A stretch of 33,009 nt of DNA from an uncultured Bacteroidales bacterium (GTDB lineage Bacteria; Bacteroidota; Bacteroidia; Bacteroidales; WCHB1-69), in assembly GCA_946407715.1 (NCBI GenBank), contig CAMJPH010000022.1:1-33009 (forward strand), written 5' to 3'. The stretch's first letter is position 1. Each line of letters starts with the position of its first letter. Of the stretch, positions 1,904 through 18,994 are shown piece after piece. The position numbers and the translations under genes are program-made. The notes beneath the pieces were generated by a model that did not search any database, had not been told where the DNA came from, and was given only the letters and a program-made list of their open reading frames with translations.

Positions 1904-2617
1904 CTAAACAAACTTCACCACGCTCTTCATCGTCTCCATCTCCTCCATGTTGATGAGGATGTTCTCGCTGAGGAAGTCGTTGACCGGCTTCATCACGCGG
2001 AAGACGTGCGCGATGCGTTGCGCGTAGTCGTCGCGACAGAGGTCTTTGGGCTTCAACATGCAGGACATGGCATAGTCCTTGCAGGTGAGGTATTCGGGGT
2101 GCGGAGAGTCTTTCGGCAGACCGTTGGGAATGCGTTTGTAGTGTTCCTGCCCGATGGTCGGCACTAATTTCTTAAGTTCCGGTTCTTCCACAAGTTTCAC
2201 GAAATCAGTCATTTGTTCGGCAACGGCAGTGCGCAGCTGGTGCATTTCCTTCGTGGGAAGCCACCACACACCGCTCGCCAGCATCACCTGCTCGGGTTCG
2301 ATCTGGATGTAGTAGCCGCCCCAGTAGGCCTTCTTGCCGTACTGGTTCATGTACGCGCCAAGATGCCCTTTGTAGGGCGTTTTGTCGGGCGAGAAACGGA
2401 TGTCGCGGTAGATGCGGTAGGTGCAGTCCTTCGGGGTGAGTCCGGCAATCGATTCGTCAAACTCCCCTACCGCTGCTATCACATTCTCCATCAATACGTT
2501 AAACTGTGCCCACGCGGCATCGTACAGCTCCCGATGCGCTTTGAACCACTCGCGGTTGTTGTTGGGAATCAGCTCACGGAGGAAGGAGAAGAGGATTTCG
2601 TTGGGATGTTGTTTCAT
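1904..2617 (-). CDS. DUF2461 / TIGR02453 family protein
   Basis: This 237-residue protein begins MKQHPNEILFSFLREL and shows the NNNREWF motif near residue 25, then the family hallmark region YRIYRDIRFSPDKTPYK and a GGYYIQIEP strand, all typical of DUF2461. The function of the family is unknown. In-frame alternatives exist at 2632 (ATG) and 2638 (TTG); 2617 was chosen because the family motif usually lies close to the N-terminus and the longer forms add only five to seven residues. It lies downstream of the two secreted-protein genes on the same strand, 29 bases after the stop of the nearer one, so it may be cotranscribed. It is predicted cytosolic, with no signal peptide or membrane segment. 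Confidence 0.88.
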   Translation of the reverse strand: MKQHPNEILFSFLRELIPNNNREWFKAHRELYDAAWAQFNVLMENVIAAVGEFDESIAGLTPKDCTYRIYRDIRFSPDKTPYKGHLGAYMNQYGKKAYWGGYYIQIEPEQVMLASGVWWLPTKEMHQLRTAVAEQMTDFVKLVEEPELKKLVPTIGQEHYKRIPNGLPKDSPHPEYLTCKDYAMSCMLKPKDLCRDDYAQRIAHVFRVMKPVNDFLSENILINMEEMETMKSVVKFV

Positions 2618-2646
2618 ATTTATTAAATTCATTATCAAGATGGTTA

Positions 2647-4116
2647 TCAGAAAACGGTAATCGTTCCTCTCAAGTTATATGGTCTCTCAATAATATCAGA
2701 ATAGTGAATCAAGTAGTTGTAAACGACACCATGGAAGATTTTGCCGTTAACTTCGCCTTTCCATCTGAAATGCTTGTCGGTGGAGTGGAAAACTACTGTG
2801 CCCCAACGATTATAAACGGTGATTTCAAAGTCAGTGATCTGCGGGAGGTACTCTTCTGGAAGATGAAAATAGTCGTTGAGACCGTCGTTGCGGGTGGGTG
2901 TGATGGCATTGGGGAGGTAAATAATCAGAGTGTCTCTTTCACCGAAATCCAAGGAATCCGGATCGTAGCCTGGATCAGGGTCAACACCACTATCGAGTGT
3001 AAGTGTCAGGACAACTGTACTGTCACATCCATTCTGGTTGTTGAAATACTGGGTGTAAGTGCCGTCTTCCGTGTAGGTTACACCATTCCAAACAAAAGGT
3101 CCAGTGGCGGTTTGCTCCAAATAGACCGTATCGTGCGGCATCACCGTGAGGAAAAGCATGACTTCGCTCTCGCAGCCAGCGGCGGATACCGTATGCGAGC
3201 GGACTATTTCCCCAGCTTCCGCCGTTTCCTGCGCACTTAACGTAAAACCGTGGTTATTATACGTCGAACCCTGACAGATGGTGTCGTAAATCACTTGCGG
3301 GGCGTTGTCAATGACCATCACGTCAGCAGAGGCGGAGTTTGTACAGCCGTATGCGTTGCTCACGGTGACGGTATAGGTCGTGTTCTGCAACGGAACATCG
3401 TGAAAGTGCGGTTCGGTGCTTCCGGTGTTCCACAGGTACGTCAACGTGGAATCGTAAACATTCTCCCGTGGCGGAAAGCTGCAGACGGCGCGCACCCGAA
3501 AGTCACTTTGATTTTTAGGCGATTTTCTGGGCGTTCCAGTGACATCTGTATAGGAATAGGAAAGATTTGTATCATCAAAAAAGTACATACACCAAGCCGA
3601 TTCGCTATTGGCTTCAGTACTGCTCCAGTATGCAGCATTGTAGCCATCGGAATTATAGAGATCATAAGAACTATCCAAAGGAGTTCCCCCAACCAATATC
3701 AATGCAGCTTGAATCAGCGGTAACTGTGCATAGATCAAACAAAGTTGAGCCATTGCAGGCACATACCAACCATGGTTGAAATCCACAGCTCCTGCTGCGT
3801 AATTATTACTCGCCCCACAAAAATTACGTATCGCTTGCGTGTTCGCATATCCGGATGTGTCCGCCATAGGTGCTTGCGCCACAGAGGCTCCATAGTTGGT
3901 CAATGCAGGCACGTCAACCGCCGTGGTGGACCAGGGGAGCAGAGTATCTTGATCTTGAAGTGCCACCGCCCAACCGCCACCGTCCGCATGCACGAAGAAG
4001 ACAATGCCTTGAGAGCCATCGGGAGCGACATAAAGATCGCCCACATGGTATGCCTGTCCAAAGCCAAACAGTATGACTATCTGCAGCAGCATATATGTGA
4101 CAAGTCTTCTCTTCAT
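2647..4116 (-). CDS. Secreted surface protein with Lcl/DUF1566-like domain and type B T9SS sorting domain (CHU_C)
   Basis: The 489-residue precursor starts with a signal peptide (MKRRLVTYMLLQIVILFGFG). Residues about 24-210 form an Lcl/DUF1566-like module, with GIVFFV, WAVALQD, HGWYVPAMAQL and YWSSTE and a closing FRVRAVCSF. An Ig-like segment (YLWNTGST) and a YDTICQGSTYNNHGF unit follow, then GCDSTVVLTLTL. The last 90 or so residues (YLPNAITPTRNDGLND, FEITVYNRWG, NGKIFHGVVYNY) are a gliding-motility-type C-terminal domain, the type B signal that sends proteins across the outer membrane by the type IX system. The gene begins 12 bases after the preceding secreted-protein gene, so the two are probably an operon. 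The ligand and role are unknown; adhesion or sugar binding is only a family-level guess. Confidence 0.85.
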   Translation of the reverse strand: MKRRLVTYMLLQIVILFGFGQAYHVGDLYVAPDGSQGIVFFVHADGGGWAVALQDQDTLLPWSTTAVDVPALTNYGASVAQAPMADTSGYANTQAIRNFCGASNNYAAGAVDFNHGWYVPAMAQLCLIYAQLPLIQAALILVGGTPLDSSYDLYNSDGYNAAYWSSTEANSESAWCMYFFDDTNLSYSYTDVTGTPRKSPKNQSDFRVRAVCSFPPRENVYDSTLTYLWNTGSTEPHFHDVPLQNTTYTVTVSNAYGCTNSASADVMVIDNAPQVIYDTICQGSTYNNHGFTLSAQETAEAGEIVRSHTVSAAGCESEVMLFLTVMPHDTVYLEQTATGPFVWNGVTYTEDGTYTQYFNNQNGCDSTVVLTLTLDSGVDPDPGYDPDSLDFGERDTLIIYLPNAITPTRNDGLNDYFHLPEEYLPQITDFEITVYNRWGTVVFHSTDKHFRWKGEVNGKIFHGVVYNYLIHYSDIIERPYNLRGTITVF

Positions 4117-4128
4117 TTTTCAATCAAA

Positions 4129-6423
4129 TTAAAAATTACGGACAGCCCGCACAAACTTCTGTGCACCTTTCTCAACCGATTTTAACGTAAAGTTACTACT
4201 CAAACACCAAGCCGTGAAACCGGTATCCTCTGTTGAAGACCAATATTCCCAGCCCAAATCCAGTGGAAAAGTATCCACTCCAATGATTTGCAAGGTGTTG
4301 TTCAGCATACCAAGAGTGGCATACAAATAATAGAGTTGCGCGGAAGCGGGCAGATACCATCCATGGTCAAAATCCACAGCGTAAGCCGCAGGATATTGCA
4401 TTTCGTTTCCAAGAGCTCTGAGGGTAGCCGTATTCTGGAATCCGTCCATATCCCCGAGAGCCAAGAACGCAGAGTTGTAGTAGTTCGGCAAAGAGGCTAT
4501 ATCTTCAATGGAATTGGCCCATCGGAAAGTGGCATTTTCATCCTGCAAGTTGACTGCCCAATCATGCTGTCCCGTGTTATCCACATAAAACACGACACCC
4601 CATGCAATCTTGCCACATGGCCAGTCTGAAGGATGCACACGGGCACTGTCTGTACACAAAATATCCCCCACCGCAACATTTTGGCTTTCGTATGACAACG
4701 TAACCGAGGCTTGGGCGCCCACAGCGTGCAACTCGGTCTCCTGACCCACACAAAGCAGAGGGGGATCAGACAAAGCTGTGATTTCCGGAATTTCGGCTAC
4801 TATCAGCTGCAATGTTGTAATGCTGTCACAGCCGTTGGCTGTGGTGTCGTAATGAGTGAAAATGGAGAATCCCAAACTATCCTGAACGCCCAGCTGGAAT
4901 CCATGCTGTGCATAGTCGGTGCCAACGCAAACGGTGTCGAAATAGTAATCGTAATAGGCTGGTAAAACATTCACTTCTAATGGGATAGAACCATTCCCGC
5001 AACCATTGGCACCGGTCAGCGTGATGATGGAAGTAGCTGGTGCATTCTGCGTAAAAAACACCATGACCGTATTCGTGCCCTGACCGTTCACAATGCTAAC
5101 CCCTTCAGGTACGTTCCAATCAAAAAAGGTCAATCCTTCGGAATTGGGAAGGGAATAATGTTCTATTGACCTGCTGCACACTATCGTGGGGCCGCTGATG
5201 ACATTGGGAAGCGTGAACGAGGCATTGATCGTGAGGTGCAACACCGTTGTGGAGTCGCATCCGGCAGCTCTTGGCACCGTAATGGAATCCACAATCACCC
5301 CTTCAGAAAGTTGGCTGAACTGAAAACCATAGTCGTTGTAGTTGTCGCCCTCGCAAGCAGCATCATAAATGTGATAGAAACGTTGATAGACGTACAGATG
5401 TAAGGTGGATGTGGCCCCCTCTTCGCAACTGGTAATATTATAATAAACGTTATGGATGACCTGGTCTCCCTGCGTCATTTGTGGAGGCAAGTCAAAGCCA
5501 TAATTATGGTAGGTATCTCCTTGGCAAATGGTATCATAAAAATCCTGATCCTGGGTAGGCACGTTTTGACTGACAATGGTCCCAGAGAAGGTAAGCTGGC
5601 ATCCAGTGACAGTGTTGGCCACGCAAGTGACAACGGTATCACCCTGCACGATGCAAGACGTTGAAGTGGCTGTGCTGCCGTTGTTCCAGAGGTAGGTTTC
5701 GAACCCCTGTGGAGCACTAAGCGTTACCTGAGTGCCGTCACAGCCGGAAAAAGAGAGCTTATTGCTGATACACCTTGCGGTGAAATAGGCGTACCCGAAA
5801 TGGACATAATAGCCGCAATCATACGTGGAGAGCTGCAGTTTTACAGTCTGTCCCGCGTATGCCGACAGGTTGAAACCATTGGTCGTCCAAGGCCGCCACA
5901 TAATATGTACACTCTCTGAATACTCAAAGGGTTGGAAACCGGGAATATCACTCGATGAAACTACATCGTATTCCATACAGTCGTTCAAAAGAACACCATC
6001 AGCATCAAGCATGTGGATGAGGAAGCGCGGCTGCATGGGGAGTTCGTGGCTGGGATTCTCCAAAACAACGGCATACTTCAGTAACAGAATAGGATATTCA
6101 GGGTCAACTGTGAAGGTATAGATCAGTGACTTCGTCTCGCCTCCCGCCTGCTCGCACCCTAATCTAATCACGGTACTCTCCCCATCAGGGAGCAGCGGCA
6201 ACTGTCCGCCTGTCCGCGGATCCGTCCCCTGTTGCGTGATAAGGGTGTGATGTCCCGGCGCGATGCCGATGCTCGTCGGGGTATTCGTCAGAGATCCATC
6301 AATCGGTCCATAGATCCCCATCACTTGGTCACTTGACAAATCCATAAAATCCGGACACTGTGCTTGAGCGGTGAGAGCAAGAAGCCCCCACAGCAGGGTG
6401 ATCAGGATTTCTTTGGGACGCAT
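4129..6423 (-). CDS. Large secreted repeat protein with C-terminal Lcl/DUF1566-like domain, no sorting domain
   Basis: The 764-residue protein has a signal peptide (MRPKEILITLLWGLLALTAQ, then AQC). A jelly-roll-like N-terminal region is followed by three copies of a module opened by YDTICQGDTYHNYGF (near 296), YDAACEGDNYNDYGF (near 353) and FDTVCVGTDYAQHGF (near 495), two closing with GCDSxTTxL. An Ig-like insert (GPTIVC to GANGCGNGS) lies at about 411-477. Residues about 585-764 are an Lcl/DUF1566-like domain paralogous to the N-terminal domain of the next gene. The protein stops directly after that domain (RAVRNF), with neither a type A nor a type B sorting domain, unlike its partner. It may stay periplasmic, be lipid-free and released, or ride with the partner protein. 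Confidence 0.82.
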   Translation of the reverse strand: MRPKEILITLLWGLLALTAQAQCPDFMDLSSDQVMGIYGPIDGSLTNTPTSIGIAPGHHTLITQQGTDPRTGGQLPLLPDGESTVIRLGCEQAGGETKSLIYTFTVDPEYPILLLKYAVVLENPSHELPMQPRFLIHMLDADGVLLNDCMEYDVVSSSDIPGFQPFEYSESVHIMWRPWTTNGFNLSAYAGQTVKLQLSTYDCGYYVHFGYAYFTARCISNKLSFSGCDGTQVTLSAPQGFETYLWNNGSTATSTSCIVQGDTVVTCVANTVTGCQLTFSGTIVSQNVPTQDQDFYDTICQGDTYHNYGFDLPPQMTQGDQVIHNVYYNITSCEEGATSTLHLYVYQRFYHIYDAACEGDNYNDYGFQFSQLSEGVIVDSITVPRAAGCDSTTVLHLTINASFTLPNVISGPTIVCSRSIEHYSLPNSEGLTFFDWNVPEGVSIVNGQGTNTVMVFFTQNAPATSIITLTGANGCGNGSIPLEVNVLPAYYDYYFDTVCVGTDYAQHGFQLGVQDSLGFSIFTHYDTTANGCDSITTLQLIVAEIPEITALSDPPLLCVGQETELHAVGAQASVTLSYESQNVAVGDILCTDSARVHPSDWPCGKIAWGVVFYVDNTGQHDWAVNLQDENATFRWANSIEDIASLPNYYNSAFLALGDMDGFQNTATLRALGNEMQYPAAYAVDFDHGWYLPASAQLYYLYATLGMLNNTLQIIGVDTFPLDLGWEYWSSTEDTGFTAWCLSSNFTLKSVEKGAQKFVRAVRNF

Positions 6424-6541: not shown

Positions 6542-7414
6542 TCACTCCACGTGTTTCAGCTTCTCCACCACCTTCGGTCTGTCCTCCGCGTAGGTGACGC
6601 CGAACCATTCGGCGGTGGTGGGCAGGACACGCACGGTGGCGAGACCGCGTTGCATGACGGAGGTCACCGCGTCAGGGATCGGAAACTCGGCCTTGATGTT
6701 GCCTTCGTTGTCATTCAGGAACTGCGCGAACATTTCTGTCAGCGTGTCGAAGAAGCACGGGGAGAAGCCCCAGAAGTTCATGGAGACGGGCTCCTCGCCA
6801 GTTAGCGGGGTCACCACGCCGTCCTCGTCGTTCTGGATGCCGTCGGCCGTGCGGGCGATCTTGCGCATCTCCTTGACAATCGTCAGGTAGCCGTTTCCAT
6901 CAACTTGGCAGACACCGCGCGAGACGGTGCCGTTCTCCGACAGCGTCTTGTCCAAACGGTAGCCGACCATCGCGAAGGCGGTAGGGTCGTTGGCGGTGAC
7001 GTCGCGCAGGTAGTCGCCCAAGATCTGGAAGGGCTCCTTGCCGTAGAAGTCGTCGGCGTTGATTACCGTGAAGGGCTCCTGGATGGCGTCCTTCGCCACG
7101 AGGATGGCGTGCGCGGTGCCGTAGGGTTTCACGCGCTCGGGGTTCACGGAGAAGCCGGCGGGCAGCATGTCGAGCTCCTGGAAGACGTACTCCACAGGGA
7201 TGACGTTCTTGTATCTCGGCAGGATGTACTCCTGGAAGTCGGCCTCCATGCTGCGGCGGATGACGAGCACCACCTTGCCGTAGCCGGCTGCTGCGGCGTA
7301 CTTCACGGAGTAGTCGAGGATGGTTTCACCATTCGGACCCATCTGGTCCAGTTGTTTCAGTCCGCCGTAGCGGCTTCCCATGCCGGCGGCGAGGATTAGT
7401 AGGGTTGGTTTCAT
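6542..7414 (-). CDS. Nucleotidyltransferase-family protein (sugar-1-phosphate NTP transferase fold)
   Basis: The 290-residue protein opens with LLILAAGMGSRYGGLKQ (residues 5-21), the nucleotide-binding signature of sugar-phosphate nucleotidyltransferases, followed by GETILDYSV. The acidic motif NADDFYG near 120 is the metal-binding site of the fold. Such enzymes couple a sugar phosphate or similar acceptor to NMP, but the substrate cannot be read from sequence, and no cognate sugar-pathway or phosphotransferase gene lies beside it. It is predicted cytosolic. It lies downstream of the SDR gene on the same strand, but about 260 bases of repeat-rich spacer separate them, so it is probably transcribed on its own. 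No clear TAnnTTTG box was found immediately upstream. Confidence 0.85.
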   Translation of the reverse strand: MKPTLLILAAGMGSRYGGLKQLDQMGPNGETILDYSVKYAAAAGYGKVVLVIRRSMEADFQEYILPRYKNVIPVEYVFQELDMLPAGFSVNPERVKPYGTAHAILVAKDAIQEPFTVINADDFYGKEPFQILGDYLRDVTANDPTAFAMVGYRLDKTLSENGTVSRGVCQVDGNGYLTIVKEMRKIARTADGIQNDEDGVVTPLTGEEPVSMNFWGFSPCFFDTLTEMFAQFLNDNEGNIKAEFPIPDAVTSVMQRGLATVRVLPTTAEWFGVTYAEDRPKVVEKLKHVE

Positions 7415-7516
7415 ATTGTTACTTTTTTGTTTGTTTTTTCGTTATTGTTTGCCCACACTGCGCTCCACTTCCACTTTTTCGCCACTCCGCAGTCCGTAAC
7501 GCTCTGCCGTATCATG

Positions 7517-7600
7517 CCCCACATTGCGCTTCGCTTGGGTGGGGTTAATTGCGCTTCGCGCGTGTTGCCTCTCCGAGGCTGCTTAAGGAAGATGTTTTTA
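7517..7600 (+). repeat. Dispersed intergenic repeat, copy B
   Basis: About 80 bases starting CCCCACATTGCGCTTCGCTT and running through TTAATTGCGCTTCG and GCCTCTCCGAGGC to AAGGAAGATG. A second copy lies inverted at 32487-32570 with about nine differences. CCCCAC/GTGGGG and GCCTC/GAGGC pairs predict two hairpins. A partial echo (CCCACACTGCGCTCCACTT) is seen near 7450. The repeat occupies the 7415-7676 spacer; the rest of that spacer (7620-7680) is TTCATC-rich low-complexity DNA. Confidence 0.8.
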
Positions 7601-7676
7601 TATATGGGGCTTTTTACGTTCATTCATCGTCCTTTCATCATTCATTCATCGTTCTTCATCGCTTTTCATCGCATCA

Positions 7677-8480
7677 TCACATCGGATTGATCTTCCGGGC
7701 CAGTTTCGCACAGAGGCCGGGGAAGAATCGTTTGATGTGGGCCATGATGAGTTCGGAGCTGCCGACGAGTTGTTCGCGTTTCTCCTTGGCGATGGCGTTG
7801 AAGATGATACGGGAGGCCTTCTCGGGGGTGATGCCGCCGGCCTGGCCCGCGTCCATCTTGCCGTGCTTGCGGCCGTCCTTCTCCAGCGAGTTGACGGAGA
7901 TGTTGGTCTGCACGCGACCAGGGGTGAGGATGGTGACACGGATGCCGTCCTTATAGTTCTCCGCCGCCACGGTCTCGAAGAAGCCGTAGAGGGCGTGCTT
8001 CGCCGACGAGTAGGCGCAACGCAACGGGAACCCGAAGAGTCCGGCGATGCTGGTGGTGACAGCTAACTGTCCCCCACCCTGCTCGTTCATCTTGGGCAAC
8101 ACGGCCTTCGTAAGGATGACCGGCGCGTAGAAGTCGATGTCCATCACCTTGCGGATGACGGCCATATCGGTCTCCACGGTGGTGCCGCGCTGGCTTATGC
8201 CGGCATTGTTGTAGAAGACATCGATTCGCCCATAAGCATTGAGGGCATCCTGCGCAAGTTGCGGCAGCGCGTCGGTCTGCCCGAGGTCGAACGGCAGGCA
8301 GGTCACATCTTTTGCGCCCAGCCGCAGACACTCCTCGCGCACCTGCTCTAACAGGTCTGGCTCTAATGCCGTGAGAATCAGCCGCGCCCCCGCCTCCGCA
8401 AAGCGGAAAGCAGTCTCTTTGCCGATGCCGGAGGAGGTGCCGGTGATCCAGACTACTTTGTTAGTATAGATGTTTTTCAT
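7677..8480 (-). CDS. Short-chain dehydrogenase/reductase (classical SDR)
   Basis: The 267-residue protein has the Rossmann glycine motif TGTSSGIG at residues 13-20, the NNAG stabilising motif at 91-94, a catalytic Ser at about 144, and YxxxK at Tyr157/Lys161. This is the full set for an NAD(P)-dependent classical SDR. The substrate is unknown; the extended C-terminus (AHIKRFFPGLCAKLARKINPM) resembles membrane-associated SDRs acting on lipids or sterols, but this is weak. It starts 15 bases after the end of the broken restriction gene on the same strand, so it may be read from the methyltransferase promoter. Its GC-rich codon use contrasts with the AT-richer R-M segment upstream. Confidence 0.9.
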   Translation of the reverse strand: MKNIYTNKVVWITGTSSGIGKETAFRFAEAGARLILTALEPDLLEQVREECLRLGAKDVTCLPFDLGQTDALPQLAQDALNAYGRIDVFYNNAGISQRGTTVETDMAVIRKVMDIDFYAPVILTKAVLPKMNEQGGGQLAVTTSIAGLFGFPLRCAYSSAKHALYGFFETVAAENYKDGIRVTILTPGRVQTNISVNSLEKDGRKHGKMDAGQAGGITPEKASRIIFNAIAKEKREQLVGSSELIMAHIKRFFPGLCAKLARKINPM

Positions 8481-8495
8481 ATTATTCTTCTTTCA

Positions 8496-9102
8496 TTAAA
8501 CTGTTAAATCCAATGGAAGGTCACTGATGTCTTTCAATCGTTTGCCATCAACAAGAATGTTAAGCATTTCCGAGGCATCGTGTTATGAGAAGCTCTTATA
8601 TCTGTCAATGTTGCATTTTTATCATCAACAATTAAGGTGTTCTTGTTGATTTCTTCATCTATTTCAGGTTCTCTATAAACAACGACATCGGGTGATACTA
8701 TATACTCATTCCCATGGCAGCTGCTAAGCGAGCATCTGTCTTAATCATATTGTCCAAATATGACAAGTGTTCGTATTGTGAAAAACCACTGATTTTCAAT
8801 GAACTTCTATTCCCCAATTTTTCCACATGCCATTTTCCTGGACGTAAATCTGAAAGCAAAGGAAATGTATTCCTCAAAAATTCCATGTTAATCTGTTCAA
8901 ATTTAGCTCCACTGGTTTGTCCTAAAGCCTTACTTTGCTCATTGACAGAAATTTGTTCCGCAATGCCTTTAGCTATAAGAACAGACAGTTTTGATGAGCT
9001 ATCAGCATTGCTGGGTATTCCTTTACTATCAACAGTTAACACTCCATCAGACAACAAATGCTGATGGTAATTCTTCCTCGAGGTTGTAATGAGTGTATTC
9101 AT
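8496..9102 (-). pseudogene. Broken NgoMIV-family type II restriction endonuclease
   Basis: Residues 1-134 of the first frame (start 9102) align with the N-terminal half of NgoMIV as remembered, including IPSNAD, IAKGIA, LGQTSG, the active-site Glu in KFEQ, and the LRPGKWHVE region. A one-base loss near 8709/8710 ends that frame at a TAG at 8698-8700. The next frame continues with YIVSPDVVVYREPEIDEEIN (retaining the active-site Asp) to ASHNTMP. There the family sequence jumps about 80 residues to DASEMLNILVDGKRLKDISD and the native C-terminus (stop 8496-8498), in another frame. The missing block holds the catalytic Ser and Lys. The seven bases GATGCCT at the join (8573-8579 on the plus strand) read correctly in both frames, which suggests deletion between short direct repeats. 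The start overlaps the methyltransferase end by 56 bases. Confidence 0.9.
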
Positions 9103-10036
9103 AATCTAAAACATCTTTGATTCGTAAACCGACTGCTTTAGCCACAGGAGGAGGAAAGGCATTCCCTATCATGCGGCAAGCGAGTGTCTTTTTATCCCCA
9201 AATGTCCAATCATCCGGAAATCCTTGAATGCGAGCCATCATACGAGGCGTCAGGCGAGGAAAACCTTCAAAACAAGGCGGAGGGGCTTCATTACCGACAC
9301 CACGTCCGTCAATGCCCAACAAGCTCCATGCTTGACGTGCGCGTGTTGGCCCTAAATCCGGACCGCCATGTTTCTTGCTTCCCCCGACAAGAGTTGGAGC
9401 AATCCTATTCGCCCTTTTTCTCCATTCGTCAGCACCCGACCAGCCATTCTCGACCATCAAATCATAAAGGGTATCTCCAACACTTTTTGTCAAATGTGGT
9501 TGAGGCATAGGATATGTAAAAATGTCTTTCAAATCGTTACGTACAGCCACTATGACAGTGCGAGGACGTAACTGAGGAACAGTGTAATCTGAGGATTGCT
9601 GTAATCGAATATGTGTGCGATATCCCAACTGATTTAGTTCGGACAAAATAGTATTTCTATAAACATCGAATTTCCTATCCAAAAATCCCCTCACATTCTC
9701 TATCATCACCACTTTGGGGTTAATTTCACCAACCAATCGCAACATTTGGGGAAATAAATCACGTTCATCATCTTTTCCCAACTGCTTGCCGGCAACACTG
9801 AATGGGGGACACGGAACGCCACCTGCCAACAAATCTATGGAATTATAGTAAGGTTTTCCATCAAAATCTGCCACATCCATACACTGTACATTCCAACTCG
9901 GTCTATTTCGCATCAAACAATCGCAATACTCCTTCTCGTATTCAATCAACACGAGATGCTCAAAGCCGGCCTGTTCAAGTCCTAACGCCTGACCGCCAGC
10001 CCCTGCGCATATCTCTATGGATGTGTACTTCTTCAT
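9047..10036 (-). CDS. DNA cytosine-5 methyltransferase, probably GCCGGC-specific (M.NgoMIV-like)
   Basis: The 329-residue protein has the C5-methylase motifs in order: SAM-binding EICAGAGGQALGLEQAGF (about 8-25), the catalytic PC motif GGVPCPPFS with Cys76, ENV at 113-115, QLRPR at 155-159, and the C-terminal RMIGNAFPPPVAKAVG. All look intact. It methylates cytosine C5 in duplex DNA; the GCCGGC specificity is inferred only from the NgoMIV-type endonuclease remnant that follows. GCCGGC occurs at, for example, 7154, 7283, 7382, 7836, 8199, 9788, 9965 and 10458, the sites at 9788 and 9965 lying inside this gene. With the partner dead, it should now act as an orphan methylase. It has its own promoter 17 bases upstream of the ATG. 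Confidence 0.93.
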   Translation of the reverse strand: MKKYTSIEICAGAGGQALGLEQAGFEHLVLIEYEKEYCDCLMRNRPSWNVQCMDVADFDGKPYYNSIDLLAGGVPCPPFSVAGKQLGKDDERDLFPQMLRLVGEINPKVVMIENVRGFLDRKFDVYRNTILSELNQLGYRTHIRLQQSSDYTVPQLRPRTVIVAVRNDLKDIFTYPMPQPHLTKSVGDTLYDLMVENGWSGADEWRKRANRIAPTLVGGSKKHGGPDLGPTRARQAWSLLGIDGRGVGNEAPPPCFEGFPRLTPRMMARIQGFPDDWTFGDKKTLACRMIGNAFPPPVAKAVGLRIKDVLDYEYTHYNLEEELPSAFVV

Positions 10037-10053
10037 TCGATTTATTATGTCGG

Positions 10054-10061
10054 CAAAAATA
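10054..10061 (-). promoter_or_regulatory. -7 box of the methyltransferase promoter
   Basis: Read on the minus strand this is TATTTTTG followed by CCG, matching TAnnTTTG, and it lies 17 bases before the methyltransferase ATG. No convincing TTG -33 box was found at the usual distance. Confidence 0.6.
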
Positions 10062-10157
10062 CAAAAGTTTACGGTAACATGACGAAAAAAGTTATTTCAC
10101 AAAAGCAACTATTTAGGGTTGGACAGGGATTATTGCTTGTCTGCGTTGCGGCGTAGC

Positions 10158-10192
10158 AAAAAAACACCCCGGAATCACTCCCGAGGTGTTTC
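10158..10192 (-). terminator. Rho-independent terminator after kce
   Basis: On the minus strand AACACCTCGG pairs with CCGGGGTGTT (10 pairs, one G-U) around an 8-base loop and is followed by a run of T. It lies about 30 bases beyond the kce stop codon and closes the kal-kce unit. Confidence 0.85.
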
Positions 10193-10220
10193 GTACGTTT
10201 CACATCACATGTTTTATGCC

Positions 10221-11051
10221 TTATCTTTTCTTCAGGCCGAGAATTTCGCGAGCCTCATCGGAGGTGGCGACGGGACGGCCGAGCAGTTTGGCCATACGGA
10301 CAACCTTGTCAACGAGTTCACCGTTGCTCTTGGCGAGCACGCCGCGTTCGAGGTAGAGGTTGTCTTCAAAGCCGACACGCACGTTACCACCCATGACGAT
10401 GGTGGGAGCGGCGAGGGTGAACGCGTGACGGCCGATGCCAGTGCTGGTCCAAGTGCTGCCGGCGGGGATGTTCTTCACAAGCCAGCAAAGGTTGTCAACC
10501 GTGGCGGGGGTGCAGCCGGGCACGCCGAGCACGAAGTTGAACTGCATCGGGGCACCGGGAACCTCGCCCTTGCGAGCCATGGTGAGGATAGTGTCGAGGT
10601 GACCCATCTCGAAGCACTCGTATTCGGGTTTGATACCACGCTCGATCATGCGTTTGCCAAAAGCGCGCATGGTAGGCATCGTATTGTCGAAAATCTCGTC
10701 TCCAAAATTGCATGTCCCGCAGTCGAGAGTTGCCATTTCCGGAATCGGAGTGGTATCTGTCGATTGCAAACGCTCATCGGGAGTCATGCCCACGGCACCA
10801 CCCGTTGAAGGAATAAGGATGACGTTCGGGCAAGCCTTGTAGATGGCATCCTCGCATTCCTGAAAGCGGGCGCGGTTCTGTGTGGGCGTGCCATCGTTCT
10901 CGCGCACGTGCAGATGCACGATGGCGGCACCAGCATCCACGGCACTTTTGGCTTCGCGCACAATTTCCTCAACGGTGTAAGGAACGGCCGGATTCTGTTC
11001 TTTCGTTACTTCAGCACCGCAAATAGCGGCAGTTATGATCAATTTCTCCAT
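10221..11051 (-). CDS. kce: 3-keto-5-aminohexanoate cleavage enzyme (BKACE/DUF849 family)
   Basis: The 276-residue length is that of characterised Kce. In lysine fermentation this zinc enzyme converts 3-keto-5-aminohexanoate and acetyl-CoA to 3-aminobutyryl-CoA and acetoacetate. Two metal-ligand histidines are in IVHLHVR (His46, His48); the third ligand is probably Glu229 in GFED. STGGAVG near 82-88, PEMATL and NFGDEIF, and the C-terminal REILGL are family features. Because DUF849 enzymes act on many beta-keto acids, the assignment rests on overall resemblance to Kce and on the adjacent kal gene, whose product uses 3-aminobutyryl-CoA next. It follows kal after a 113-base spacer of heptads and ends at a terminator. 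Confidence 0.87.
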   Translation of the reverse strand: MEKLIITAAICGAEVTKEQNPAVPYTVEEIVREAKSAVDAGAAIVHLHVRENDGTPTQNRARFQECEDAIYKACPNVILIPSTGGAVGMTPDERLQSTDTTPIPEMATLDCGTCNFGDEIFDNTMPTMRAFGKRMIERGIKPEYECFEMGHLDTILTMARKGEVPGAPMQFNFVLGVPGCTPATVDNLCWLVKNIPAGSTWTSTGIGRHAFTLAAPTIVMGGNVRVGFEDNLYLERGVLAKSNGELVDKVVRMAKLLGRPVATSDEAREILGLKKR

Positions 11052-11097
11052 ATTGGTTGTTTACTTTTTTTGTTACTGTTTAAGTGTTGAAACGTAT

Positions 11098-11167
11098 GAC
11101 TTAAGACTTGAGACTTAAGACTTTATCTTTTTCAGACATATTTTCACGTCTTACGTCTTACGCCTTA
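11098..11167. repeat. Inverted pair of heptad arrays in the kal-kce spacer
   Basis: Units GACTTAA, GACTTGA, GACTTAA and GACTTTA fill 11098-11125. CGTCTTA, CGTCTTA and CGCCTTA fill 11147-11167 in the opposite sense, so the transcript could fold into a long imperfect hairpin. On the minus strand the first three bases of the outermost unit (TAAGGCG) are the kal stop codon. Confidence 0.85.
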
Positions 11168-11560
11168 ATTCTTCCGTTGGCACTGTTTGGGGACAACGCA
11201 GGTGCCGGAGGCGCGGCAGACCACGATGGGTTCTTCCAAGACATCGGCGGCGGAAGCACTAATGTCAGGGCGCGGACGGACGACCTTGCGGGCCTCGAAG
11301 ACCATCTTGCGAGAGGTGTTGCCCACTTTGGTGATTTCTCCTACAGCTTCAATATAGTCTCCGGCATACACAGGCGCAAGGAATTCCACGTTGTCGTATG
11401 CGCAGAAGAGACCTTCATCGCCGTCTTGCATAATCAGCAACTCCGTGGCCACATCGCCGAACAAGGCAAGCATGTGAGCACCGTCAACCAAATTTCCGCC
11501 ATAGTGTGCGTCTTGAGAACTCATTCTCAAACGAATCATTGATGTTTTCTTTTCTTCCAT
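11165..11560 (-). CDS. kal: 3-aminobutyryl-CoA ammonia-lyase (hotdog fold)
   Basis: The 131-residue protein is a single hotdog domain with the strongly Kal-like stretches [20 protein letters not shown] (residues 8-27), [29 protein letters not shown] and [19 protein letters not shown]. Kal removes ammonia from 3-aminobutyryl-CoA to give crotonyl-CoA, which feeds the butyrate end of lysine fermentation. It is the first gene of a kal-kce pair with a promoter box 54 bases upstream. The earlier pathway genes (kamA, kamDE, kdd) are not in this window, so the pathway must be completed elsewhere or be partial. The C-terminal KQCQRKN is followed at once by a stop codon lying inside the heptad array. 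Confidence 0.9.
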
Positions 11561-11614
11561 AATGTATTGTTTTTCAGAATAATAATATTATTTTTCAAAC
11601 TTTTTTCGATTCGG

Positions 11615-11622
11615 CAAATTTA
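11615..11622 (-). promoter_or_regulatory. -7 box of the kal-kce operon
   Basis: Minus-strand TAAATTTG followed by CCG fits TAnnTTTG and lies 54 bases upstream of the kal ATG. The -33 region is not clear. The rest of the 11561-11739 spacer is AT-rich with no gene. Confidence 0.5.
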
Positions 11623-11739
11623 CATAAATTTCATACACCACCGAATTTGATTTGAAAGAAAAAACACAATTACACGTCAAGAATGCCAACTACACTTCCA
11701 CAAGGCGAAGAAAAATGAACTGATGTTTTTTTTTCTCCA

Positions 11740-12534
11740 TCACAAAGTCTTCCGGATTTCTTTTATTTCTTGAAACAAAGTGTTGTAGTTCAACACGAAA
11801 TGACTTGTAAGACGGCTAAGCAAGGACAAGAACTCCACATTCTTCTGTTTCTCGAAAATCGTGGAGATTGATAGACCGTGCAAGTAATAACGATGGTTCA
11901 ACGCCTCATTCACCACCTTCTGAATGGCTGTTTTGTGCCCTTTTTCATCCTTCACAATGCCCGACTTGTTCAGAAAGGAGGGGCCCGCCTCAAACTGTGG
12001 CTTGATCAGGAACATCATCTGCCCGTCTTGCTTCAAAAAAGGATCAATATAGGGGATGATATAGGTCAATGAAATGAAAGAGACATCGGAAACAATAAAA
12101 TCAAATTTCTGATTGTCAACATCTTCTATTGTAAGTTCACGAAAGTCCTTGTTTTCAAAGACCGTCACGTTGGGATGATTCCGCAACTGCTCGACCAATT
12201 GGGCAGTACCCACATCGACAGTGGTGACCGATGCGGCTCCGTGCTGCAACGCGCAGTCCGTGAAGCCGCCCGTGGAAGCCCCGATGTCCAACACCGTCTT
12301 CCCGACAAAATCCAACCCGAAATCCTTGATCGCCTTCTCCAACTTCAACCCGCCCATGCTCACATACTTGTTGAAAAGGTCTATCACCTCCACCCGCATC
12401 GACTCCGTGATGTCCATGGACGCTTTCGTCACGATACGCCCATCCACCATCACCGTCTCGTGCTTGATGGCGGTCTGCGCCTTCTCCCGCGAGGAGAAGA
12501 AGTTGTTGTCGGTAAGATATTTGTCTAATCGCAT
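11740..12534 (-). CDS. tlyA: TlyA-family rRNA 2'-O-methyltransferase (S4 plus FtsJ-like domains)
   Basis: The 264-residue protein begins with an S4 RNA-binding domain (MRLDKYLTDNNFFSSREKAQ, ending near residue 60). The SAM motif VLDIGASTGGFTDCAL at about 81-96 is typical of the TlyA/RrmJ fold, and further conserved stretches are FDFIVSDVSFISLTYI and FLIKPQFEAG. TlyA proteins methylate 2'-OH positions of 16S and 23S rRNA; older annotations call them hemolysins. The length matches the family. It is downstream of ftsK on the same strand, separated by about 150 bases bounded by inverted heptads, so separate transcription is likely. The ATG overlaps the end of a possible 33-residue frame described separately. 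Confidence 0.92.
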   Translation of the reverse strand: MRLDKYLTDNNFFSSREKAQTAIKHETVMVDGRIVTKASMDITESMRVEVIDLFNKYVSMGGLKLEKAIKDFGLDFVGKTVLDIGASTGGFTDCALQHGAASVTTVDVGTAQLVEQLRNHPNVTVFENKDFRELTIEDVDNQKFDFIVSDVSFISLTYIIPYIDPFLKQDGQMMFLIKPQFEAGPSFLNKSGIVKDEKGHKTAIQKVVNEALNHRYYLHGLSISTIFEKQKNVEFLSLLSRLTSHFVLNYNTLFQEIKEIRKTL

Positions 12535-12626
12535 AATAAAGATGTTAGACTTGAGACGTAAGACGTGAGACTTTGGGGTCCTACGGTTGTGTCTTGTAAT
12601 TCGGCAAAAAGTTCTTCGTATTTCAT
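12525..12626 (-). CDS. Possible 33-residue frame, perhaps a truncated XseB-like start
   Basis: A frame from an ATG preceded by AGGAAGAA reads MKYEELFAELQDTTVGPQ, then runs into the heptad array and stops inside the first codons of tlyA (overlap 10 bases). The first dozen residues resemble the YxEAFxELQ opening of exodeoxyribonuclease VII small subunits, but the conserved remainder is absent. It may be a remnant cut off by the repeat array, or a chance frame. Confidence 0.2.
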   Translation of the reverse strand: MKYEELFAELQDTTVGPQSLTSYVSSLTSLLCD

Positions 12627-15397: not shown

Positions 15398-15445
15398 TAT
15401 CGCTTAGCGATAGCTAATCACTAATCACAATTCACCAATCACTAA
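15398..15445. repeat. Hairpin and TCACTAA-class heptads in the ftsK leader
   Basis: TATCGC-TTA-GCGATA (15398-15412) is a perfect 6-base hairpin. It is followed by 7-base units TAGCTAA, TCACTAA, TCACAAT, TCACCAA and TCACTAA (15411-15445). Both lie between the presumed ftsK transcription start (near 15452) and its GTG, so they would be in a leader of about 120 bases. The class matches the array at 1860. Confidence 0.75.
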
Positions 15446-16748: not shown

Positions 16749-17443
16749 TCAAAACTAACGAGAATAGGAAAGATAATGTGATTGCATGGTGTACGACTAT
16801 CGGCACCATGGCATTATTATTGATTTTGCTTCTGGCCTGTAGTCTTAAGACGCAGATTCCCCCGCCACCGCCAAAACAGTTGGTCTATGTTGACATAGCC
16901 CCGATGGGCGGCGGCGGAGGTGGCGGTACTCCTCAGGTTGCCTCCAACCCGAAGCCTACAGCCGGGCAGAACTACGCCACTCAAAACGCGCAGGACGCCC
17001 CTGCTGTGAGCCACTCGAACCGGACAACCACAAAGCCGACCTCCCAGACCGTTCCGTCCCAACCTAAACCCGATCAGTCGTCCATGTACCATGGTCGCGG
17101 CGGCAGTGGTAGCGGTGGCGGTTCAGGCAGCGGTATCGGCAGCGGCACGGGCTCCGGCCTCGGTCCCGGCGAAGGCGGCGGCAGCGGCGGCGGTGTCGGC
17201 TATGGCACCGGCCACCGTGGGATGTTAAACAACATTGCTCTTGATGTCAATGAGGAAGGGCAAGTATGCGTAGAGGTGCATATCGCCGCTGACGGACACA
17301 TCATCGATGCCCGCGTCATCAACACCTCCAAGCATAAAACCACCATCACCAGCCGCAACATCCAGCAACAATGCGTGGCACGCGCCAAACAGGCTCTATA
17401 CAAGCCCGGGAAAGAGGAACTGCGAATAATCGTATTCAGTTAG
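16745..17443 (+). CDS. tonB: TonB-like energy transducer with Gly/Ser-rich linker
   Basis: The 232-residue protein has a single N-terminal membrane anchor (about 13-32, WCTTIGTMALLLILLLAC) followed by PPPPPK. The middle is a Ser/Thr/Pro stretch and then a long Gly/Ser repeat (about 118-155), where classical TonB has Pro/Lys repeats. The C-terminal 75 residues (VNEEGQVCVEVHIAADGHI to KEELRIIVFS) resemble a short TonB C-terminal domain. The gene order exbB-exbD-tonB supports transfer of proton-motive force to outer-membrane receptors, but no TonB-dependent receptor is nearby. The Gly-rich linker would be more flexible than a Pro-rich rod. The stop TAG shares its G with the first unit of a heptad array. 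Confidence 0.82.
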   Translation: MIKTNENRKDNVIAWCTTIGTMALLLILLLACSLKTQIPPPPPKQLVYVDIAPMGGGGGGGTPQVASNPKPTAGQNYATQNAQDAPAVSHSNRTTTKPTSQTVPSQPKPDQSSMYHGRGGSGSGGGSGSGIGSGTGSGLGPGEGGGSGGGVGYGTGHRGMLNNIALDVNEEGQVCVEVHIAADGHIIDARVINTSKHKTTITSRNIQQQCVARAKQALYKPGKEELRIIVFS

Positions 17444-17470
17444 ACTTAAGACTTGAGACTTGAGACTTTG
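17443..17470. repeat. Four-unit heptad array, GACTTAA class
   Basis: Units GACTTAA, GACTTGA, GACTTGA and GACTTTG begin on the last base of the tonB stop codon. In the gene's direction the units carry TAA and TGA in successive frames. Confidence 0.9.
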
Positions 17471-17497
17471 GGGGATTCTATAGAATTCCCTTTTTTT
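17471..17497 (+). terminator. Rho-independent terminator of the exbB-exbD-tonB operon
   Basis: GGGGATTC and GAATTCCC pair (8 base pairs, one G-U) around TATA and are followed by seven T. It lies just beyond the heptad array, 28 bases after the tonB stop. Confidence 0.8.
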
Positions 17498-18901: not shown

Positions 18902-18994
18902 TCGGCGAATTTCACGAATTAGGCGGTCGGCGAATTTTACGAATTAAGCGAATAATATTCGTACGATGAAACGATGAAACAATGAAACGACGAA
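18901..18994. repeat. Tandem 25-bp duplication and 8-base unit array after folC
   Basis: Two 25-base units lie at 18901-18925 and 18926-18950, each opening GTCGGCGAATTT and differing at two positions. The first begins on the last base of the folC stop codon. An octad array follows at 18963-18994: ACGATGAA twice, ACAATGAA, ACGACGAA. Confidence 0.88.

What the first reader, a model, noticed from the sequence alone, without database searches (positions are those of the whole stretch)
8496..10036. Restriction-modification system caught in decay: dead NgoMIV-type nuclease, live methylase
The endonuclease frame is broken twice. A single-base loss near 8709/8710 shifts the frame just before the SPDVVV segment with the active-site Asp. 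About 80 family residues, which in NgoMIV include catalytic Ser185 and Lys187, are missing at 8573-8579. The native C-terminus (KRLKDISDLPLDL) survives in a third frame. The methyltransferase has all its motifs. Losing the nuclease first is the safe order of R-M loss and leaves an orphan GCCGGC methylase.
Basis: partly seen in the sequence, partly recalled or inferred. Interest (0 to 1): 0.75.

Follow-up and report, generated by a model that had tools for sequence, protein, structure and literature searches.

The report
Dead restriction enzyme, surviving DNA methylase
A bacterium's DNA-cutting defence gene has lost its working core while the partner gene that marks the cell's own DNA looks intact, an ordinary stage in the loss of such systems that is also seen in related bacteria.

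Summary
Minus strand 8496-9102 is a broken NgoMIV-type restriction gene beside an intact C5-cytosine methyltransferase (9047-10036). Three frames carry consecutive pieces of the nuclease. The frame changes at 8709/8710, before the active-site PD. About 250 nt (NgoMIV residues 179-259) are missing at 8573-8579, bases that read as both sides of the gap, as a short-repeat deletion would leave. The lost block holds Ser185, Lys187, Glu201 and the RSDR recognition motif, so the deletion alone kills the enzyme. The pieces deviate at 1 of 54 family-invariant positions, so the damage looks recent; the methylase deviates at 2 of 124. No nuclease match over cut-off was found in 40 same-genus genomes: probable recent horizontal gain.

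The decay recurs. Among 25 species-level loci with a close methylase, 21 nucleases are intact, 2 frameshifted, 2 gutted by deletions that keep the gene's end. A nuclease-first scan of 398 Prevotella genomes gave 10 loci: 6 intact, 2 frameshifted beside intact methylases (the same two as above), 2 remnants with both genes gutted. All 8 close methylases there still adjoin a recognisable nuclease, so the orphan state may be brief. New member of a known kind; reads and methylation untested.

The parts
9047..10036 (-). C5-cytosine methyltransferase gene, 329 aa, intact frame (predicted target GCCGGC)
   Evidence: PF00145 E 8.8e-70 over 2-323/324; 60% identical to the methylase beside NgoMIV; deviates at 2 of 124 invariant columns
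8698..9102 (-). Nuclease remnant, N-terminal ORF (134 aa; overlaps the methylase end by 56 bases); holds the Glu70 equivalent (FE, 8901-8896)
   Evidence: PF09015 positions 1-122/275, E 1.4e-35; 1fiu_A E 6.4e-25
8709..8710 (-). Net one-base frame change between the N-terminal and middle pieces
8573..8710 (-). Nuclease remnant, middle piece in another frame; holds the PD motif (Asp140 equivalent, codon 8689-8687)
   Evidence: tblastn with intact relatives; coordinates
8573..8579 (-). Deletion junction: about 250 nt (NgoMIV 179-259) missing; these bases read as residues 177-178 in one frame and 260-261 in the next
8496..8579 (-). Nuclease remnant, C-terminal piece in the third frame with the native stop (8496-8498)
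   Evidence: (89% to the last 27 residues of the L009 nuclease); stop read
10050..10066 (-). Promoter-like element TTTTGTATTTTTGCCGA upstream of the methylase, also seen before host genes in same-genus genomes
   Evidence: by eye; 3 matches at up to 1 mismatch in the window; largest count in 100 shuffles 0
10158..10191 (-). Hairpin followed by a T run (terminator-like) between the upstream BKACE gene and the methylase
   Evidence: seen by eye; not scored

Best explanation
This is a horizontally gained type II restriction-modification pair of the NgoMIV kind (G/CCGGC), recently inactivated on the nuclease side only. One event removed about 250 nt, probably between short matching stretches, taking out the catalytic lysine, the second acidic residue and the CCGG-recognition motif; another shifted the frame by one base before the active-site aspartate. 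The methylase, with its own promoter-like element, most likely still methylates GCCGGC as a newly orphaned enzyme. Shown: the broken frames, the lost residues, the intact methylase frame, no close match in the held same-genus genomes, and similar decay elsewhere. Inferred: methylase activity, its exact target, the short-repeat mechanism in this locus, the order of the two lesions, and that loss of the nuclease was tolerated because the methylase stayed.
For: Pieces in three frames. Missing block contains K187, E201 and R-SDR: positions; Glu70, Glu201 and Ser192 inside the R-(D/E)R motif of NgoMIV are named in passages of PMC6344858 and PMC4652773; Lys187 follows from the motif spacing given there and from recall, Ser185 from recall. 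Little further decay: 1 of 54 invariant positions (33+8+13) over the three pieces, that one (T to I at residue 104) also seen in P0001 and P0002; 21 intact relatives score 0-2 per piece; methylase 2 of 124. R-M at 37-48% GC against 50-64% in the neighbouring genes at 6900-8399 and 10200-11399. No nuclease match over cut-off in 40 same-genus genomes. Homology of relatives' SDR loci stops at 8481-8495, beside the nuclease stop codon. Parallel decays. Large neighbouring genes such as FtsK and FtsH are full length.
Against: No reads, so the one-base change could be an error. No methylation or expression data. AT-richness is not unique in the window: 11400-12299 is 38-48% GC. The BKACE and SDR blocks flanking the pair lie on different contigs in the four relatives compared in detail, so a chimeric contig cannot be wholly excluded. 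A full-length nuclease of this exact clade was not found, because the search that found the closest relatives admitted only proteins of about 74-235 aa. GCCGGC is not depleted in the window (13 against 14.7 expected).
Confidence: 0.86

Rival explanations
1. Assembly or sequencing error: the nuclease is intact in the living organism.
For: Own assembly and reads not available; flanking blocks are arranged differently in relatives; single-frameshift pseudogenes can be sequencing errors (PMC3488263, passages).
Against: A 250-nt deletion with a clean junction is not a base-call error. Large neighbouring genes match their Pfam families nearly end to end. Other loci carry different deletions of the same gene.
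Confidence: 0.07
2. The whole pair is dead or silent: the methylase is also inactive through a missense change or lack of expression.
For: Two Prevotella loci have lost most of both genes (L147, L151), so the methylase can go too. All 8 close methylases in 398 Prevotella genomes still adjoin a recognisable nuclease, so lasting orphans were not seen there.
Against: Full-length frame, 2 of 124 invariant columns changed, promoter-like element.
Confidence: 0.12
3. The 134-aa N-terminal ORF is kept as a functional truncated protein, such as a decoy or regulator.
For: It is 92% identical to P0001, about as much as the methylase is to P0216, 93%.
Against: Decay elsewhere breaks at many different places, one locus (L010) leaving no N-terminal domain at all; the high identity is equally explained by recent damage.
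Confidence: 0.04

Closest known systems
NgoMIV restriction-modification system (Neisseria gonorrhoeae)
   Same: Methylase then nuclease on one strand; methylase 60% identical; nuclease pieces align in order with NgoMIV, whose full gene lies directly after that methylase
   Different: Nuclease broken in frame and without residues 179-259; the two genes overlap by 56 bases here
Solitary C5-methyltransferases that arise by loss of the nuclease
   Same: Intact methylase frame, no working partner nuclease in the window
   Different: Here the dead partner is still readable. Oliveira et al. 2014 (PMC4176335; passages and section 20 seen) argue that most solitary genes do not come from recent degradation
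ScmA of Caulobacter (solitary methylase of YGCCGGCR; PMC12907096, passages seen)
   Same: Solitary cytosine methylase whose motif contains GCCGGC; a fitness cost of losing it is reported
   Different: Homology to ScmA was not tested. That paper ties the effect to a Vsr-like protein; none appears in the Pfam scans of 28 window ORFs, and the rest of the genome could not be searched
NaeI-type systems of Alphaproteobacteria (L032, L041, L050)
   Same: Methylase 60-62% identical to the window's
   Different: Partner nuclease is NaeI, not NgoMIV

Membership tests
NgoMIV restriction endonuclease (PF09015) | Family profile match | tested here: met
   N-terminal piece 123.3 bits against cut-off 23.2, positions 1-122 of 275
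NgoMIV restriction endonuclease (PF09015) | Gln63, Glu70 and PD (Asp140) | tested here: met
   GQTSG.KFE in the first frame, SPDVVV in the second; but not in one frame
NgoMIV restriction endonuclease (PF09015) | Catalytic Lys187 and Glu201, R-(D/E)R motif 191-194 | tested here: not met
   Inside the missing block 179-259
NgoMIV restriction endonuclease (PF09015) | Single open frame | tested here: not met
   Three frames
NgoMIV restriction endonuclease (PF09015) | Cleaves GCCGGC | not testable with these tools
   No assay; loss follows from the missing residues
C5-cytosine methyltransferase (PF00145), M.NgoMIV type | Full-length profile with the conserved motifs | tested here: met
   2-323 of 324; PCPPF, ENVRGF, QLRPR and GNAFPPP read (motif roles recalled)
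C5-cytosine methyltransferase (PF00145), M.NgoMIV type | Methylates GCCGGC | not testable with these tools
   Inferred from 60% identity to the methylase beside NgoMIV
Orphan methyltransferase | No working cognate nuclease in the genome | tested here: inconclusive
   Own assembly not held; window nuclease dead
Orphan methyltransferase | Retained by selection for its methylation | not tested
   No strain series available

The most novel reading that the evidence does not exclude
In gut Bacteroidota the NgoMIV-type pair is dismantled repeatedly by internal short-repeat deletions that gut the nuclease (or both genes) but keep the outer ends, perhaps because in some loci the pair abuts a host gene. 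The orphan-methylase stage is then brief rather than a route to lasting domestication, which would help reconcile frequent nuclease loss with the rarity of orphans derived from complete systems.
Probability: 0.3. Interest if true: 0.5.

Novelty: new member of a known kind. Interest (0 to 1): 0.36.

Why it matters
Whether solitary methylases come from decayed restriction systems is disputed; PMC4176335 (passages and section 20 seen) says rarely. Here several loci of one family are seen mid-decay, and in a two-way scan of 398 Prevotella genomes none of the 8 close methylases had lost its nuclease without trace. With strain-level data this family could give rates for each step of loss.

Tried and rejected
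Site avoidance: GCCGGC is not depleted in the window (13 seen, 14.7 expected from a maximal-order Markov count), so no footprint of past restriction; low power in 33 kb.

Empty site: a 32-base match of window 10045-10076 beside SDR in G010 looked like an empty insertion site. Comparison showed a promoter-like element common upstream of genes in this genus, so the reading was dropped. Upstream regions of SDR differ among the ten relatives printed.

Relaxed evolution: nuclease against methylase identity (window with P0001/P0216: methylase 92.7%, nuclease N-terminus 91.5%) lies within the scatter of 820 pairs. P0001 and P0216 are paired only because both list a longest contig of 6277 bases.

Protein search bias: admits only proteins of about 74-235 aa, so its 95 hits favour broken nucleases and cannot give a rate. 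Many other shortened entries may be contig ends or frameshifts. One search scored only the 8000 candidates sharing most words and listed 120, ranked on another query, so it does not show whether this clade has an intact nuclease.

The 80 loci kept of 261 are ranked on methylase similarity, so broken methylases may be under-represented; hence the nuclease-first scan. The two scans overlap: G492, G493, G495 and G498 are the genomes of L002, L003, L007 and L020.

Host-gene constraint on deletions: in 38 loci measured, a same-strand ORF of 100 aa or more begins within 40 bases of the end of the nuclease ORF in 11, and none within 400 bases was found in 9 (for L020 the ORF measured is the frameshifted one). 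That is weaker than I first thought, and I lowered the novel reading from 0.35 to 0.3 for it.

The nuclease search over 393 genomes of the order found nothing; the tool warns that an empty answer without a positive control shows nothing. Over 104 genomes of the family 1 matched.

Paper searches listed no report that I recognised as this locus or as recurrent internal deletion of NgoMIV-type nucleases. Only openly licensed papers are held, and Seshasayee et al. 2012 is not. PMC5608340 (Prevotella intermedia R-M systems; passages) mentions neither GCCGGC nor NgoMIV.

Full report
What is there. On the minus strand the window reads BKACE-family enzyme (11051-10221), methyltransferase (10036-9047), nuclease remnant (9102-8496) and a short-chain dehydrogenase (SDR, 8480-7677), all in one direction. 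The methyltransferase is a full-length C5 enzyme. The nuclease is in three pieces, each in its own frame, in the right order: 9102-8710 (NgoMIV 1-132), 8710-8573 (133-178) and 8579-8499 (260-286), with the native stop at 8496-8498.

What is broken. The frame changes by a net one base at 8709/8710. At 8573-8579 the same seven bases read as the last residues of the middle piece (MP, 177-178) and the first of the C-terminal piece (DA, 260-261). About 250 nt are missing there, 81 residues in NgoMIV numbering, and the loss is out of frame. A junction shared by both sides is what a deletion between short direct repeats leaves. The intact parent of this clade was not available, so the repeat is inferred, not shown. 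In L018 the parallel deletion can be compared with its close relative L016, and the junction lies in a shared TGAAA.

Why it is dead. Passages of PMC6344858 and PMC4652773 name Glu70 and Glu201 of NgoMIV in the active site, the family pattern PD...K...E, and an R-(D/E)R motif that reads CCGG, with Ser192 of NgoMIV inside it. In the NgoMIV sequence this puts the aspartate at 140, the lysine at 187 and the motif at 191-194. Ser185 as an active-site residue is recalled. Lys187, Glu201 and the motif are in the missing block. Glu70 and Asp140 remain but in different frames. The deletion alone is enough.

How recent. Across the three pieces the window differs from 21 intact relatives at 1 of 54 otherwise invariant positions (33+8+13); the relatives score 0-2 per piece in a leave-one-out count. 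The one change is T to I at residue 104, and P0001 and P0002 have it too, so it belongs to the clade. The methylase differs at 2 of 124, relatives 0-4. Family-wide constraint has had little time to relax.

Where it came from. The pair has 37-48% GC in 300-base steps, against 50-64% at 6900-8399 and 10200-11399; but 11400-12299 is 38-48%, so low GC is only a hint. In 40 same-genus genomes (23 of them at least 90% complete and at most 5% contaminated) no PF09015 match passes the family cut-off; one weak match (G063, 20.4 bits) is below it. The best-scoring methylase relative there is 37% identical over 2-306, the next 42% over 2-183. One of 104 same-family genomes has a nuclease, full length and next to a methylase. 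SDR has a DNA match in 35 and BKACE in 34 of the 40 genomes. In the four compared in detail (G001, G010, G014, G021) they lie on different contigs; among the places listed I saw one shared contig, G012:C86, with SDR and part of BKACE about 26 kb apart. In the ten SDR loci compared, homology stops at window 8481-8495, at the edge of the nuclease stop codon. So the pair sits at a junction of two chromosome blocks: either a real rearrangement, as restriction systems are often linked to (recalled), or less likely a contig error. The methylase has a promoter-like element identical over 17 bases to one before SDR in G010 and similar to others in the genus.

Is it a pattern? Methylase first: of 261 relatives in species-representative genomes the best 80 were kept. 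The closest 25 (L002-L026, at least 63% identical) all have a methylase match without internal stops. Their nuclease is intact in 21, frameshifted in 2 (L007, L020), cut by an internal deletion in 1 (L018, about residue 147 joined to 272) and reduced to its last 9 residues, read by eye, in 1 (L010). Whole-genome searches found no intact nuclease in the genomes of those four. Of all 91 loci checked (80 plus 11 viral contigs), 43 had an NgoMIV-type match, including a weak one (L033) and one cut by the contig end (L043), and 48 had none, L010 included. Five of those 48 were sampled: L032, L041 and L050 carry NaeI, L046 and L063 an HNH gene, and a Vsr was confirmed in L032, the one tested for it. 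So 'no NgoMIV' does not mean solitary.

Nuclease first: of 398 Prevotella genomes, 9 matched, with 10 loci: 6 intact with a methylase free of stops, 2 frameshifted with intact methylase (G495 and G498, the genomes of L007 and L020, so not new cases), and 2 remnants, in G823 and at a second locus in G492, in which both genes are gutted. In G823 (L147) methylase residues 4-140 and nuclease 255-285 remain; in G492 (L151) nuclease 256-285 remains after about 14 methylase residues seen by eye (tblastn reported no methylase there). Methylase first in the same genomes at E up to 1e-80: 8 loci, the same 8 genomes whose nuclease is intact or frameshifted. None of the 6 intact nucleases sits beside a broken methylase. 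Numbers are small, many of these genomes are metagenome bins, and the two frameshifts could be errors; the deletions are harder to explain that way.

Reading. The data add that the damage is recent, that the deletion junction looks like a short-repeat event, that the same family decays elsewhere by internal deletion, and that in Prevotella no close methylase of this kind was found free of its nuclease. That hints the orphan stage is short. PMC4176335 (passages and section 20) argues that most solitary genes do not come from recent degradation; a transient orphan stage would agree with that while still allowing frequent nuclease loss. PMC12907096 (passages) reports a solitary methylase of a GCCGGC-containing motif in Caulobacter with a fitness role, so persistence is possible in other hosts.

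Limits. No reads, no methylation data, no name for the organism (type IX secretion domains suggest Bacteroidota; inference), and no full-length nuclease of the same clade.

Noticed in passing
L147:1058-1596; L151:about 4090-4221: Two Prevotella loci keep only the start of the methylase and the last 30 or so codons of the nuclease: whole-pair internal deletions (the methylase start in L151 by eye).
   Followed up: partly
window 8480-8498; L010; L147: In some loci the nuclease end lies within tens of bases of a same-strand gene (SDR here, 15 bases; in L010 and L147 a gene that looks like miaA, by recall). In one search, 11 of 38 loci had one within 40 bases and 9 of 38 none within 400.
   Followed up: partly
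window 8495-10158: The pair joins two chromosome blocks that are on different contigs in the four same-genus genomes compared in detail.
   Followed up: partly
window 2606-6397: A block with two large genes bearing secretion-type domains is present at 96% in G001 but missing between the flanking sequences in G010, G014 and G021.
   Followed up: no
window 11087-11123, 12547-12579, 15414-15445, 17442-17471, 18963-18994: Short stretches that recur at many places in same-genus genomes.
   Followed up: no
protein P0007: A nuclease that after about residue 175 runs into residues resembling the methylase tail (EYTHY), perhaps a tandem rearrangement.
   Followed up: no
MT836008.1 1204-1596: A 13.9-kb 'Bacteriophage sp.' record from human faeces encodes a protein 62% identical to the N-terminal nuclease piece.
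   Followed up: no
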